64,000 nt of DNA from an uncultured Gemmata sp. (GTDB taxonomy: Bacteria; Planctomycetota; Planctomycetia; Gemmatales; Gemmataceae): NCBI GenBank assembly GCA_937924775.1, contig CALDUT010000002.1, forward strand, positions 124,001 through 188,000. Reading direction: 5' to 3'. The notes beneath the pieces were generated by a model. It was not told where the DNA came from, made no database searches, and saw only the letters and a program-made list of their open reading frames with translations. The position numbers and the translations under genes were made by a program. This document shows, one piece after another, positions 19,835 to 27,348 of this stretch. Within the stretch, counting starts at the first letter, position 1; each line of letters starts with the position of its first letter.

Positions 19835-20134
19835 TAATGCTAAATGACGGCTGCCAATCCGCGGTCAGTCAAGCTCCCGGACAATCTCGAGTATGTGTGA
19901 CCTGCGACAAGCATAAGACCCTCGGAGGGATTCTAATCATCTCTGGGCGGATGGCTTGTTGTTGAGGCAAAGTGCATCCGCCGTTGCTTCCCAATCCGGC
20001 ACAGTGCGATCGCATCGCCTATGGTTTTTCCGATAACGCCGGTCAAGCCTCTTGCGAGCCAGTATTGTTGGTGTTTTTTTGTGCAATGAGGAGGAATGAC
20101 CTCTGATAATTTGTGCAGAAGAGAAACCTTTCCC
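19835..20134. other. Convergent intergenic region
   Basis: 300 bases between two converging genes. A run of seven T (20074-20080) after a loosely paired stretch might help terminate the plus-strand gene, but no strong hairpin was found. A 16-codon frame at 20096 with an AGGAGG-like site overlaps the end of the FAD gene and is not called. Confidence 0.4.
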
Positions 20135-21739
20135 TTACCGCGGTAGACAATACTTCGCGACAATCGCCTTGGCAGTACGCAGACCATCGACGGCCGCGGA
20201 AACGATCCCGCCGGCATAACCGGCTCCTTCTCCCACAGGGTACAGTCCACGAACCCCCGGGGATTCCCGTGTGTGGCTGTCGCGCTCGATCCGCAGGGGA
20301 GAACTGCCCCGGGATTCTGGCCCGGCCAGGACGGCTTCGGGCAAAAATCGCCCCTGCCAACGGCGATCCATCTGCGGCAAACCGGCCATCACTGCTTCGG
20401 CTACCAGCGGCGGCAGCACTTCGCGCAAATCAGATGCAGCAACCCCCCGCGGATAACTCGTGGCGGGAATCGACTTCGACACCCGGTGGGCCAGGAAGTC
20501 CGTAGCCCTCTGAACCGGGCAGCAGTACTCGCCCCGCCCACCGAGGGTGTAGGCGATGGCTTCATACTTCTCTTGTAAGCGTACACCCGCGAGAACGTCG
20601 CGGCCCGCGAAGGCTTCGGTCGGCACGGTCACCACTAAACCGCTATTGGCAAAGGGCGAATCACGCTGGCTGAGGCTCATGCCGTTGGTGGCGAAGTACC
20701 CTTCTTGGGAAACGCTGGGGATGATGTATCCCCCCGCGCACATACAAAACGTGAACAGATCGTGCTTTCCATGAGCCACCAGTGAATAGTCCGCGTTACC
20801 CAGTTGCTGTTCGTAATAATCGTGCCGGGGGCCGAATTGCACAGTATTGACGACTTCCTGCGGGTGTTCAATACGCACCCCAAACTGAAATGGCTTGGGC
20901 GAGAGGGGCACCCCACGCGCGGCCAGCATTCGGTAGGTGTCGCGGGCGCTGTGGCCGATCGCCAAAACGACAACCGACGCGGGGATGAGTCCCCGGGAGG
21001 TGTTCACGCCGGTGAGCTGGCCGTCGCGAATTTGCAAATCTTCGACACGGGTTAGAAAATGAACTTCGCCGCCCAGGTCCTCAATCCTTTGTCGCAGGGC
21101 TTTGACTACGGCGGGCAGCCGGTTGCTGCCCAGATGGGGCCGGTGGTAATAGAGAATGCTCGGCTTGCCCGGTTGTTGTCCTTTGCATTCGGCGAACAGT
21201 TCCAGAACCCGCATCACATCGGGCCCGGTGCTGCGGCAGGTCAGCTTTCCATCGCTGAAGGTGCCCGCACCGCCTTCGCCAAACAGATAATTGCTTTCTG
21301 GATGAAAAGGACCGCCTGCGTCGAAGCGTTTGACGTCGCGAATCCGATCGCTAACCTGGGTTCCACGCTCCAAAACGATCGGGCGATACCCCATCTGGGC
21401 CAAAAAGTACGCGCACACCAACCCGCCGGGGCCAGAACCGACAACAATGGGCCGATGTGGCAAGGGTACCGAGCCGGGGGCTGGCATGGCGAACGGTGGT
21501 TCGACCACCGGTTCGAGCTGGATCGGGGGTGCCGCCCGGGGAGCGGCTTCGGGAATGTCGATTTCAAGATTGTAGACGAATCGCAACTGGCGTTTGTCGC
21601 GGAGGTCGAGAGCTTTGCGGACGATCCGCCAGCGCGTCAGCTCCGCGGCGGGTATACCCAAAGCCCGGCTCACATGCTGCGGCAGCGATGTTTCCGGTTC
21701 TTCCACCGGCAAACGGATATTGGATACACGAAAAAGCAT
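20135..21739 (-). CDS. FAD-dependent dehydrogenase (COG2509-like)
   Basis: This is a 534-residue protein. The dinucleotide-binding motif IVVGSGPGGLVCAYFLAQMG lies about residues 97-116, followed by LERG, which ends the Rossmann beta-alpha-beta. Other landmarks are FGEGGAGTFSDGKLTCR, VVLAIGHSARDTYRML and, at the C-terminus, GLYPVGEGAGYAGGIVSAAVDG, the second FAD-contact region. About 90 residues precede the FAD domain and resemble the N-terminal extension of uncharacterised FAD-dependent dehydrogenases. The domain order fits COG2509; the substrate is unknown. It lies downstream of the interrupted small gene on the same strand. Confidence 0.88.
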   Translation of the reverse strand: MLFRVSNIRLPVEEPETSLPQHVSRALGIPAAELTRWRIVRKALDLRDKRQLRFVYNLEIDIPEAAPRAAPPIQLEPVVEPPFAMPAPGSVPLPHRPIVVGSGPGGLVCAYFLAQMGYRPIVLERGTQVSDRIRDVKRFDAGGPFHPESNYLFGEGGAGTFSDGKLTCRSTGPDVMRVLELFAECKGQQPGKPSILYYHRPHLGSNRLPAVVKALRQRIEDLGGEVHFLTRVEDLQIRDGQLTGVNTSRGLIPASVVVLAIGHSARDTYRMLAARGVPLSPKPFQFGVRIEHPQEVVNTVQFGPRHDYYEQQLGNADYSLVAHGKHDLFTFCMCAGGYIIPSVSQEGYFATNGMSLSQRDSPFANSGLVVTVPTEAFAGRDVLAGVRLQEKYEAIAYTLGGRGEYCCPVQRATDFLAHRVSKSIPATSYPRGVAASDLREVLPPLVAEAVMAGLPQMDRRWQGRFLPEAVLAGPESRGSSPLRIERDSHTRESPGVRGLYPVGEGAGYAGGIVSAAVDGLRTAKAIVAKYCLPR

Positions 21740-21818
21740 GAAGTCATTGTACCAACCTGACCATTCCCAGAGCCGGGTCAGGATATGGACAGAATTTTAC
21801 CGATCGTGAAATGGGGAG

Positions 21819-21841
21819 TCCTGTACAGAATCCGTACAGGA
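21819..21841 (-). terminator. Hairpin after the interrupted small gene
   Basis: TCCTGTAC and GTACAGGA form a perfect 8-bp stem with a 7-base loop, 27 bases past the final stop of the interrupted gene. No T-run follows, so it could be a transcript-end hairpin or a processing site rather than a classic terminator. Confidence 0.45.
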
Positions 21842-21867
21842 TTGGACCGGACGTAGACGTTGGAAAA

Positions 21868-22221
21868 TCACTTCACCCGTTTGAATTTGGCGGTGGTGCC
21901 GTCGTTGTCGCGGCAGACCAGCTCATCCGCGGTGAGTTTCGTCACTTCTGTCGTGTCTTTCGTATCGCCAATGATCAGTTCCAATAGGTTACCGTTGAGC
22001 TTGTACCCAAATTCGAAGGTTTGCTTCTGCCCTTAAGCGGTGGCGCTGATAACCAATTTGCCGTCCTTTTGGAAGTCGAAGACAGAACCTTTGGGAATGC
22101 CCGCCACTTCGGCGGTCAATTCCCATGATCCGAGCAAGTCATCCAACTTTGGTTCATCCGCGGCTATCGCATTGGGAATCATCACCAAAAGGGCTGCCAG
22201 GAACCAGCGATCGAATGACAT
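21868..22221 (-). pseudogene. Small secreted protein interrupted by an in-frame TAA (TIGR03066-like)
   Basis: From the ATG at 22221 the frame gives a signal peptide (MSFDRWFLAALLVMIPNAIA) and a conserved-looking start (LDDLLGSWELTAEVAGIPKG, VFDFQKDGKLVISATA), then hits TAA at 22033-22035 after 62 codons. The same frame continues without shift for 55 sensible codons (GQKQTFEFGYKLNGNLLELI ... LTADELVCRDNDGTTAKFKR) to TGA at 21868. Both halves together match the layout of small lipocalin-like secreted proteins of the Gemmata paralogous family TIGR03066 (W-E motif, F-x-x-D-G-K, then G-x-Y-x-x-x-G-N-x-L). One base change (for example GAA or CAA to TAA) explains it. Alternatives are a sequencing error or readthrough. 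Confidence 0.8.
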
Positions 22222-22449
22222 GATAGGCCACCTTATTCAAGATTTGGGAAAGGGGATGCAGCGTTGGCAGCATTTCCCGCAATAGTACCGTATACAGTTC
22301 CATTCATTACGGAGATTCCGAGAAAAAACCTGCTTTCATCGGCTTGCGAAATGACTAAAATGAGAAAGTAGATACATTCCCGCCAACCTCGCGAGTCGGC
22401 CTCGCGCCTCACTGAAGTTTCACCGACGCGATTTCCAATAGGAGCAGCT

Positions 22450-25400
22450 ATGGTGATGTCGCGGATGACCCCTCTTTTTCCGGTATGTCTCATCGCGTGC
22501 CTGATGGTGTTGGTCGCTACTCCCTATTCCGCGTCACGATCGGCCGCGGCTCCACCACAGGCCCCGCCTTCCAAGGGCCTCATTACCCCCCCAAAAAGTA
22601 GCGGGATTGAATACAACCGTGACATCCGGCCCATTTTGGCTGAAAACTGCTTCGCTTGCCACGGCCCCGATAGCGCCGCCCGCAAAGCCGACCTGCGCCT
22701 CGACCAACGCGACATTGCCATCGAACTTAAGGCCATCGTGCCGGGAAAACCTGAGGAAAGCGAAATGATTCGGCGTATTGTCGCCGAAGACCCGCACGAG
22801 CTGATGCCGCCACCCAAAACCAACAAGAAACTAACCCGGGAACAAAAGGATTTACTTAAACAGTGGATTGCCAGCGGAGCCGAGTATCAACCGCATTGGT
22901 CGTTCATCCCGCCGGTGCGACCGCCGATTCCGGACGTCAGAAACAAAGCATGGGTCCGCAATCCGATCGATAACTTCATTTTGGCAGAATTGGAAAAACG
23001 CGGTCTCCAACCAGCCCCCGAGGCCGACCGGCGAACCCTGGCCCGGCGGCTATCTCTGGACCTCACCGGGCTACCACCCGATCCAGCGGATGTGGAGGCG
23101 TTCGTCAACGATACTTCCCCGCTGTGGTACGAGAAGTATGTGGAGAAGCTACTGGCATCGCCCCATTGGGGGGAACACCGCGGCCGCTACTGGCTTGACT
23201 ACGCCCGCTACGCCGACACCCACGGCATCCACTTCGACAACTATCGGGAGATCTGGGCTTACCGCGATTGGGTGATCAATGCCTTCAACGCCAACCAACC
23301 CTTCGACCAATTCACCATCGAACAACTTGCCGGCGACCTTCTTCCCAACCCTACACTCGATCAACTCATCGCCACTGGATTCAACCGCAACAACATCACC
23401 ACCAACGAAGGTGGGGTTATTCCCGAAGAATACATCGTTCTGTATGCCCGCGATCGGACCGAAACGACCGCGCAAGTGTGGATGGGCCTCACCGCGGGCT
23501 GTGCGGTCTGTCACGACCACAAATACGATCCTCTCTCGATGAAGGATTTCTACTCACTCTCAGCGTTTTTTAATAACACCACGCAAGGGGCGATGGATGG
23601 CAACATCCCCAATACTCCGCCGACCATAACGGTTCCGCGCCGTGAAGACCGGAAACGCTACGAAGAAATTGGCCAACAATTGAACAGTTTGCGGCAGCAG
23701 GTGGCCCAACGGCGTCAAGCCGCTAAACCCGAGTTCGACCGGTGGCTGCAAAAGGCGAATATCGCAGATATTTACGCGCAGAATCCGCGGACCGGGCTGC
23801 GGTTGCATGCCCCCCTCAACGATGGCGTCGGCGCGGAAATCCGCTTTGCTCTCGATGGGCAAATCCGCTCGGCTCCCTTCGGCGACGCTTTCGGCTGGGC
23901 TAATGGTCCCCGCAATGGCAAAGCCTTCTTGGTAGGCCTGAAAGGTGAGGGCCAAGCCCCGGCGATTCCTGACGCTGGGGATTTCGATACCAACCAACCC
24001 TTCACCGCGACGGCATGGCTGAAGCTGACCCGCAATAACAGCATCGGTGCCATCATGGCCCGGATGGATGCCAATCACCGCGGCTGGGATGTCTGGGTGG
24101 AGGGCAACCGCATTGCGATGCACCTCATTCACGCCTTCCCCGAGCAGGCCCTCAGGGTCACTTGCAACACCCCGGTGCCCGTCAATCAGTGGGTGCATGT
24201 CGCCATCGTCTCCAATGGTACTGCAAAGGCTTCTGGGATAACGATTTACGTCAATGGCCAGCCGCAACCCACCACCACGCAGGTGGATAAGCTCAGTGGC
24301 ACGACGAGAACGGAAGCTCCGTTCACCATCGGTCAGCGCTCGCACGGTGAGGGACGGCTGCTAGGCGCTAACATTGAAGATGTTCGCCTGTACGATGTGG
24401 AATTGAACGCCGAGCAGGTGGGGCAGCTGATGCGTTACGCCGCGGTGGCCGATTTGCTGGCCAAGCCGGCGTCGCAGCGAACGGCCCCCGAGACCGATAC
24501 GCTCTACAGTTGGTGGTTGGCGACCGTCGATCAGCCCACCCGCGAGTTCGAGAAACAGATCGCCCACCTTCAACGGGAAGAAGCCGCGATTCGTGGCCGG
24601 GGAACTATCGCCCACATCATGCAAGAGCGGAAGGGTTCCGAACCCATCGCTTACATTCTGTTTCGGGGCGATTACGACAAACGCCGCGAGCAAGTGAAAG
24701 CGGATACGCCCGAAGCCATGCCCCCTCTGCCGAACAACTTACCACGCAACCGTTTAGGGCTGGCCAAGTGGCTCGTTTCACCCGATCATCCGCTGACCGC
24801 TCGGGTGACGGTCAACCGCTTCTGGCAAGAAGTGTTTGGCACCGGGCTTGTGCGGACCAGCGGCGATTTTGGCGTCGCTGGGGAGTTGCCCAGCCACCCC
24901 GAACTGCTCGATTGGCTGGCCGTGGAGTTCCGCAGCCCGACGCCGGGCCTTTGCTGCGATGATCCTAAACCGTGGGACGTCAAGCAACTGTTCCGGCTGA
25001 TCGTCACCAGTGCCACCTACCGGCAAGCCGCGATCACCACACCAGAAAAACTGGAAAAAGACCGTGACAATCGGTGGCTCAGCCGTGGACCCCGCTTCCG
25101 GATGGATGCCGAAATGATCCGCGACTACGCCCTCGCAGTCAGCGGCTTGCTGGTACGCAAAATCGGCGGCCCCAGTGTCAAGCCGTACCAACCCGATGGG
25201 GTGTGGGAAGCGGTGGCCATGATCGGCTCCAACACTCGCCATTATCAACGCGATTCTGGGGAAAACCTCTACCGCCGCAGTATGTACACCTTCTGGAAAC
25301 GCTCGGCCCCACCGGCGGCGATGGAAGTTCTCAATGCTCCCAATCGCGAAACCTGCACCGTCCGCCGCGACCGGACCAACACGCCCCTCGCGGCCCTGCT

Positions 25401-25722
25401 GACGCTCAACGATGTTCAGTTCGTCGAAGCGGCCCGGGTGTTGGCCGAAAAAGCCCTGCACCACGATGCGAACGATGACAAACGGCTCGACTTCCTCGCC
25501 CGGCGGGTTCTAGCCCGACCCTTCCGCGATGCCGAGCTGCAAATTCTCCGTGCATCGCTGACACAACTGCGGTCCCACTACCACGAACAGGCGCAGGAGG
25601 CCAAGAAGCTCATCACCTTCGGCGAATCGAAACCCGATGAGAAACTGAACCCCAGCGAGTTGGCCGCATGGACCATGCTGACCAACCAGCTATTGAACTT
25701 GGACGAAGTGCTGAACAAGTAA
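22450..25722 (+). CDS. PSCyt1/DUF1549/LamG/DUF1553 exported protein
   Basis: This is a 1090-residue exported protein with AGGAG before the ATG. Signal segment residues are about 8-30. A planctomycete cytochrome C-like domain (PSCyt1) has ENCFACHGPD (C67, C70, H71) and DLRLDQRD. DUF1549 (about 165-375) contains CAVCHDHKYDP. A LamG/concanavalin-like domain (about 480-670) has FTATAWLKLTRNNSIGAIMA and WVHVAIVSNG. DUF1553 (about 765-1050) contains VNRFWQEVFGTGLVRTSGDF. The architecture is a standard planctomycete one. LamG suggests carbohydrate binding and the CXXCH motifs suggest heme. It is followed by DUF1501, the usual partner, 138 bases downstream. Confidence 0.93.
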   Translation: MVMSRMTPLFPVCLIACLMVLVATPYSASRSAAAPPQAPPSKGLITPPKSSGIEYNRDIRPILAENCFACHGPDSAARKADLRLDQRDIAIELKAIVPGKPEESEMIRRIVAEDPHELMPPPKTNKKLTREQKDLLKQWIASGAEYQPHWSFIPPVRPPIPDVRNKAWVRNPIDNFILAELEKRGLQPAPEADRRTLARRLSLDLTGLPPDPADVEAFVNDTSPLWYEKYVEKLLASPHWGEHRGRYWLDYARYADTHGIHFDNYREIWAYRDWVINAFNANQPFDQFTIEQLAGDLLPNPTLDQLIATGFNRNNITTNEGGVIPEEYIVLYARDRTETTAQVWMGLTAGCAVCHDHKYDPLSMKDFYSLSAFFNNTTQGAMDGNIPNTPPTITVPRREDRKRYEEIGQQLNSLRQQVAQRRQAAKPEFDRWLQKANIADIYAQNPRTGLRLHAPLNDGVGAEIRFALDGQIRSAPFGDAFGWANGPRNGKAFLVGLKGEGQAPAIPDAGDFDTNQPFTATAWLKLTRNNSIGAIMARMDANHRGWDVWVEGNRIAMHLIHAFPEQALRVTCNTPVPVNQWVHVAIVSNGTAKASGITIYVNGQPQPTTTQVDKLSGTTRTEAPFTIGQRSHGEGRLLGANIEDVRLYDVELNAEQVGQLMRYAAVADLLAKPASQRTAPETDTLYSWWLATVDQPTREFEKQIAHLQREEAAIRGRGTIAHIMQERKGSEPIAYILFRGDYDKRREQVKADTPEAMPPLPNNLPRNRLGLAKWLVSPDHPLTARVTVNRFWQEVFGTGLVRTSGDFGVAGELPSHPELLDWLAVEFRSPTPGLCCDDPKPWDVKQLFRLIVTSATYRQAAITTPEKLEKDRDNRWLSRGPRFRMDAEMIRDYALAVSGLLVRKIGGPSVKPYQPDGVWEAVAMIGSNTRHYQRDSGENLYRRSMYTFWKRSAPPAAMEVLNAPNRETCTVRRDRTNTPLAALLTLNDVQFVEAARVLAEKALHHDANDDKRLDFLARRVLARPFRDAELQILRASLTQLRSHYHEQAQEAKKLITFGESKPDEKLNPSELAAWTMLTNQLLNLDEVLNK

Positions 25723-25769
25723 CGTTGGCCCTGGCGATAAGTTTTCAATCCGCAGTAAACTGCCGGGGA

Positions 25770-25800
25770 ATGTGACAAAAGTTCATGATCGAAGTGATCA
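25770..25800 (+). promoter_or_regulatory. Candidate shared regulatory motif, copy 2
   Basis: ATGTGACAAAAGTTCATGATC followed by GAAGTGATCA (25791-25800), the same 10-base block and 21-base spacing as at 3124-3154. It includes the inverted repeat TGATC-GAAGT-GATCA (25786-25800). It lies 61 bases before the DUF1501 start. Confidence 0.4.
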
Positions 25801-25817
25801 ATGGACCTGGGTAGAAA

Positions 25818-25848
25818 TTGTTACAAAATTCATCAATTGAGTGATTCA
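25818..25848 (+). promoter_or_regulatory. Candidate shared regulatory motif, copy 3
   Basis: TTGTTACAAAATTCATC, then GAGTGATTCA starting 21 bases after the first T: a diverged direct copy of the element 48 bases upstream. Tandem copies suggest a regulator-binding array or overlapping promoters for the DUF1501 gene at 25861. Confidence 0.35.
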
Positions 25849-25860
25849 CCGAGACGAACC

Positions 25861-27348
<1,488 letters not shown>

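What the first reader, a model, noticed from the sequence alone, without database searches (positions are those of the whole stretch)
21868..22221. Secreted small protein gene broken by one in-frame stop
Both sides of the TAA at 22033-22035 stay in the same frame and carry family-like patterns, with a signal peptide at the start and a proper stop at the end. A single-base change is enough. It may be a young pseudogene in a large paralogous family, a readthrough case or a sequence error.
Basis: partly seen in the sequence, partly recalled or inferred. Interest (0 to 1): 0.6.

Follow-up and report, generated by a model that had tools for sequence, protein, structure and literature searches.

The report
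Broken gene for secreted lipocalin-like protein
A small gene for an exported barrel-shaped protein carries a stop codon in its middle and is most likely a dead copy of an otherwise ordinary gene family in a Gemmata-like bacterium.

Summary
On the minus strand (window 22221 down to 21868) an ATG with a good ribosome-binding site opens a 117-codon frame, interrupted once by TAA at codon 63 and closed by TGA. Each half alone matches NCBIfam TIGR03066 (E 6e-5 and 8e-5). Read through, it scores 56.8 bits, below the curated 93.25, and just passes Pfam Lipocalin_4. A model of the read-through protein is an eight-stranded lipocalin-like barrel with the stop in the turn between strands 3 and 4, so the first fragment holds three of eight strands. 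The stop's column is a variable loop position, filled in all 61 relatives aligned. Nothing found supports recoding: TAA ends 13 of 34 long ORFs in the window, no suppressor tRNA was seen, and two relatives with stops carry them elsewhere. The gene was not found beside its conserved neighbour in 17 related genomes and has no close paralogue, so it is a divergent single copy, not a fresh duplicate. Best reading: a real nonsense pseudogene. Sequencing error is the main rival; only reads can exclude it. Ordinary.

The parts
21868..22221 (-). interrupted gene: 62 codons, TAA, 54 codons, TGA; lipocalin-like relative of TIGR03066
22228..22234 (-). Shine-Dalgarno-like AAGGTGG, 6 nt before the ATG
   Evidence: read; by inspection
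22162..22221 (-). likely signal peptide, residues 1-20
   Evidence: by inspection; residues 1-16 have pLDDT under 50
22036..22221 (-). first half, residues 1-62, strands 1-3 of the modelled barrel
   Evidence: TIGR03066 E 6.2e-5; model
22033..22035 (-). in-frame TAA, codon 63, at the turn between modelled strands 3 and 4
21871..22032 (-). second half, residues 64-117, strands 4-8 of the modelled barrel
   Evidence: TIGR03066 E 8.2e-5; model
20135..21739 (-). neighbour: FAD-dependent protein, conserved, intact
22450..25722 (+). neighbour: planctomycete cytochrome/DUF1549/DUF1553 protein, conserved, intact

Best explanation
A real nonsense pseudogene. The gene once made a small exported eight-stranded lipocalin-like protein related to the TIGR03066 paralogue family of Gemmata. 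A TAA at codon 63 now ends translation after the third of eight strands, so the product would be a signal peptide plus a partial sheet that cannot close the barrel and is probably degraded. Shown: the frame, the stop, the homology of both halves. Modelled: the barrel and where the stop falls in it. Inferred: loss of function, and that the stop is real in the organism. The stop is probably recent, since no second lesion is seen, but the copy itself is divergent and not a fresh duplicate.
For: Both halves match one family in one frame. A read-through model is a lipocalin-like barrel with 8 strands, residue 63 lying between strands 55-62 and 65-76; best PDB matches are lipocalin-like proteins (4qrl: Foldseek E 6.2e-5; Z 10.7, rmsd 2.4 over 88 residues). 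Of 111 matches in 19 genomes of the genus, this is the only one with an internal stop. It is among the weakest scorers against a leave-one-out family model: 83.9 bits, rank 59 of 62, median of the others 153.8, with one of the five longest end branches. The near-invariant G-T before Tyr73 reads F-G here. TAA ends 13 of 34 mechanically chosen long ORFs of the window, both neighbours included. No suppressor anticodon was called in the tRNA loci. In the collinear part of relative G012, 21 of 21 compared genes show no stop inside their aligned coding part, so the assembly is not generally error-prone here.
Against: No reads were seen, so one wrong base is not excluded. Departures at conserved columns are not unusual: 7 of 30, and 25 of 61 relatives depart as often. 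Codon usage of both halves is normal or better (0.71 and 0.79 against a mean of 0.72), so there is no independent sign of long decay. As a singleton with no near relative, the gene would score low in a family model even if intact.
Confidence: 0.77

Rival explanations
1. The TAA is a sequencing, assembly or minority-strain error and the gene is intact.
For: One lesion only; normal codon usage in both halves; the assembly is in 27 contigs and may be a metagenome bin.
Against: 21 of 21 compared neighbouring genes show no such stop in the aligned coding part. From general knowledge, consensus base errors that make a nonsense codon are rarer than real pseudogenes.
Confidence: 0.14
2. The first 62 codons make a shortened but useful exported peptide.
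For: Start signal and leader are intact.
Against: Only 3 of 8 modelled strands remain; the second half is still family-like, which a long-standing truncation would not preserve.
Confidence: 0.05
3. The stop is read through or recoded, giving a low level of full-length protein.
For: Frame and family pattern continue across the stop; the position is a tolerant loop.
Against: TAA is an ordinary terminator here; no suppressor tRNA was called, though 2 of 49 loci were not called and the genome is 97% complete; two relatives with stops have them at other columns, one of them TGA; no relative in the genus has a stop here; no Rfam element nearby.
Confidence: 0.03

Closest known systems
NCBIfam TIGR03066 (Gem_osc_para_1)
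   Same: Collinear match over profile 2-121; G31, W33 and Y73, invariant or nearly so in the family, are kept.
   Different: 56.8 bits, under the curated 93.25; internal stop. Two intact siblings in the same genome are also under the cut-off (86.5 and 70.3 bits).
Pfam PF13648 Lipocalin_4
   Same: Read-through 23.4 bits over the gathering score of 22.4.
   Different: Barely over the line; neither half passes alone.
Bacteroides lipocalin-like protein 4qrl
   Same: Modelled barrel aligns over 88 residues, Z 10.7, rmsd 2.4.
   Different: 27% identity over the aligned residues; a shared fold shows no function.

Membership tests
TIGR03066 (Gem_osc_para_1) | score over the curated cut-off of 93.25 bits | tested here: not met
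   56.8 bits read through, 23.1 and 22.7 for the halves; called a relative, not a member
TIGR03066 (Gem_osc_para_1) | collinear match along the whole profile | tested here: met
   profile 2-121 of 121 read through
TIGR03066 (Gem_osc_para_1) | one uninterrupted reading frame | tested here: not met
   TAA at codon 63
Lipocalin_4 (PF13648) | score over the gathering score of 22.4 bits | tested here: met
   23.4 bits read through
lipocalin-like fold | eight-stranded antiparallel barrel | tested here: met
   single-sequence model, mean pLDDT 76.7, 8 strands; PDB matches; a prediction, not a solved structure
lipocalin-like fold | ligand binding | not testable with these tools
   needs an assay
secreted protein | signal peptide | tested here: inconclusive
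   by inspection only; no predictor run
stop-codon recoding | conserved stop position in relatives, or a suppressor tRNA | tested here: not met
   1 of 111 genus matches has a stop, itself; stops of two other relatives lie at other columns, judged by eye; no suppressor anticodon called

The most novel reading that the evidence does not exclude
The stop is tolerated on purpose: occasional readthrough at a loop codon, or two separately made pieces, gives a small amount of a working exported barrel.
Probability: 0.03. Interest if true: 0.6.

Novelty: new member of a known kind. Interest (0 to 1): 0.12.

Why it matters
Mostly for annotation: gene callers will list a 62-residue fragment or nothing, while the sequence is a broken lipocalin-like gene. 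It also shows that this little-studied Gemmata paralogue family loses single members, and it offers a structural reading of the family: a read-through copy is modelled as a lipocalin-like barrel. If the stop were tolerated it would be a test case for readthrough of TAA, but nothing here points that way.

Tried and rejected
Recoding was sought by position of stops in relatives, tRNA anticodons, TAA use and Rfam; none supported it. A recent duplicate or mobile insertion was sought: no DNA match to the gene in 58 relatives, no close paralogue, no direct repeats of 12 bases or more around it, and the G012 gap between the neighbours has no similarity to the gene and is not a clean empty site, so how the gene arrived or was lost elsewhere is not settled. 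Restart of translation in the second half: by eye no ATG or GTG follows the stop within the first codons; not modelled. No sigma-70-like promoter or intrinsic terminator was found in 21740-22460. Tree placement failed: long branch, unresolved. Papers: TIGR03066 gave 0 papers; two wider searches gave listings of 2 and 7 papers, none opened. The PDB sequence search gave only a weak best hit, 2mhd E 0.004.

Full report
What is there. The interrupted gene lies on the minus strand, 22221 to 21868. It starts with ATG behind AAGGTGG, runs 62 codons to a TAA (22035-22033), continues in the same frame for 54 codons and ends with TGA. The first residues look like a signal peptide by inspection.

Is it more than chance. 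Each half alone finds TIGR03066 and nothing else in NCBIfam at E up to 1 (E 6.2e-5 and 8.2e-5), on neighbouring parts of the profile, and the read-through protein scores 56.8 bits over positions 2-121. It also just passes Pfam Lipocalin_4, 23.4 against 22.4 bits. The curated TIGR03066 cut-off of 93.25 is not met. The own genome holds five TIGR03066 matches, of which two pass the cut-off; this one alone has an internal stop. A protein search adds one more weak, uninterrupted match, making six in all.

Family context. In 59 genomes searched with the family (own included), 37 had a match. Two other stop-bearing rows stand in the part of that list that was shown, which was cut off: G033 (TAA) and G013 (TGA). 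By eye their stops fall at later columns than ours. With the read-through protein, 19 genomes of the genus gave 111 matches; only the query itself has an internal stop. In 95 genomes of the family at E up to 1e-9 the highest identity listed for a match other than itself is 49%. So no ortholog was recognised.

The stop column. In an alignment with 61 relatives (from 38 fetched stretches, chosen by me from the stronger matches) every relative has a residue at the stop column: G 18, D 16, K 11, N 6, E 4, Q 2, A, M, S, T one each. It is a variable loop position. Which codon stood there cannot be told.

Structure. A single-sequence model of the read-through protein (TAA read as Gln) has mean pLDDT 76.7 and eight strands; residues 63-64 are the turn between strands 55-62 and 65-76. 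The best PDB matches are lipocalin-like proteins: 4qrl E 6.2e-5; only three of the matches have E at or under 0.001; Z 10.7 at rmsd 2.4 over 88 residues. A profile of 16 sequences found only 2mhd (uncharacterised, E 0.004) under 0.01 by sequence. The fragment before the stop would hold strands 1-3 of 8.

Neighbourhood. Downstream lies a conserved FAD-dependent protein, upstream and divergent a cytochrome/DUF1549/DUF1553 protein. The FAD gene was found in 18 of 19 genus genomes, the own one included. The 18 loci from the 17 other genomes were examined with 1.5 kb flanks where the contig allows: none has a match to the gene at E up to 1, and in 9 of the 18 the DUF1553 gene is seen beside the FAD gene. 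In the nearest relative, G012 (89% FAD identity), the DNA aligns on both sides but about 585 bases of the window, gene included, and about 400 bases there do not align. Gain here or loss elsewhere is not settled. The three clustered family genes on contig 4 of the own genome each pair with one gene of G012 with starred support; the broken gene pairs with none.

Decay or error. Against a leave-one-out family model the gene ranks 59 of 62 (83.9 bits; median of others 153.8), but its 7 departures at 30 conserved columns are matched or exceeded by 25 of 61 relatives, and its codon usage is normal. Evidence for decay beyond the stop is therefore slight. In the collinear G012 contig I took the ORFs of at least 200 residues whose best match in the window is at least 78% identical: 21. 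None has a stop inside its aligned coding part; the stops seen lie before the first Met or, once, at residue 592 of 595 (smaller and weaker rows were not counted, and one of the 21 aligned only in its second half). That argues against a poor assembly, not against a single wrong base.

Recoding. TAA ends 13 of 34 mechanically chosen ORFs of 250 residues or more, both neighbours included. Of 51 tRNA matches held in 49 loci, ARAGORN called tRNAs in 47 loci and no anticodon for a stop codon. No Rfam element lies in 20000-26000.

Verdict. A nonsense pseudogene of a lipocalin-like protein related to a known paralogue family; ordinary. Sequence error is the chief rival.

Noticed in passing
window 21822-21838: Inverted repeat TGTAC-N7-GTACA upstream of the FAD gene; of 23 related loci only L062 has one at a like distance (-74 against -99). 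In the window, 1 exact match; with 1 mismatch, 2 against 0.40 expected. Possibly an operator shared by two close species.
   Followed up: partly
L159 (G033) and L160 (G013): Two other family-like frames with one in-frame stop each, TAA and TGA, at other columns than ours: broken members occur elsewhere.
   Followed up: partly
L161 (own genome, contig 4, 34800-37100): Three TIGR03066-like genes in a row, each with its own counterpart in G012.
   Followed up: partly
own genome tRNA loci L199-L247: No tRNA-Asn was called by ARAGORN; loci L244 and L247 gave no call although Rfam matches them.
   Followed up: no
L184 neighbour G007:C311:8985-9665: Two family matches lie in one open frame of 296 residues, so some members appear fused in tandem.
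   Followed up: no
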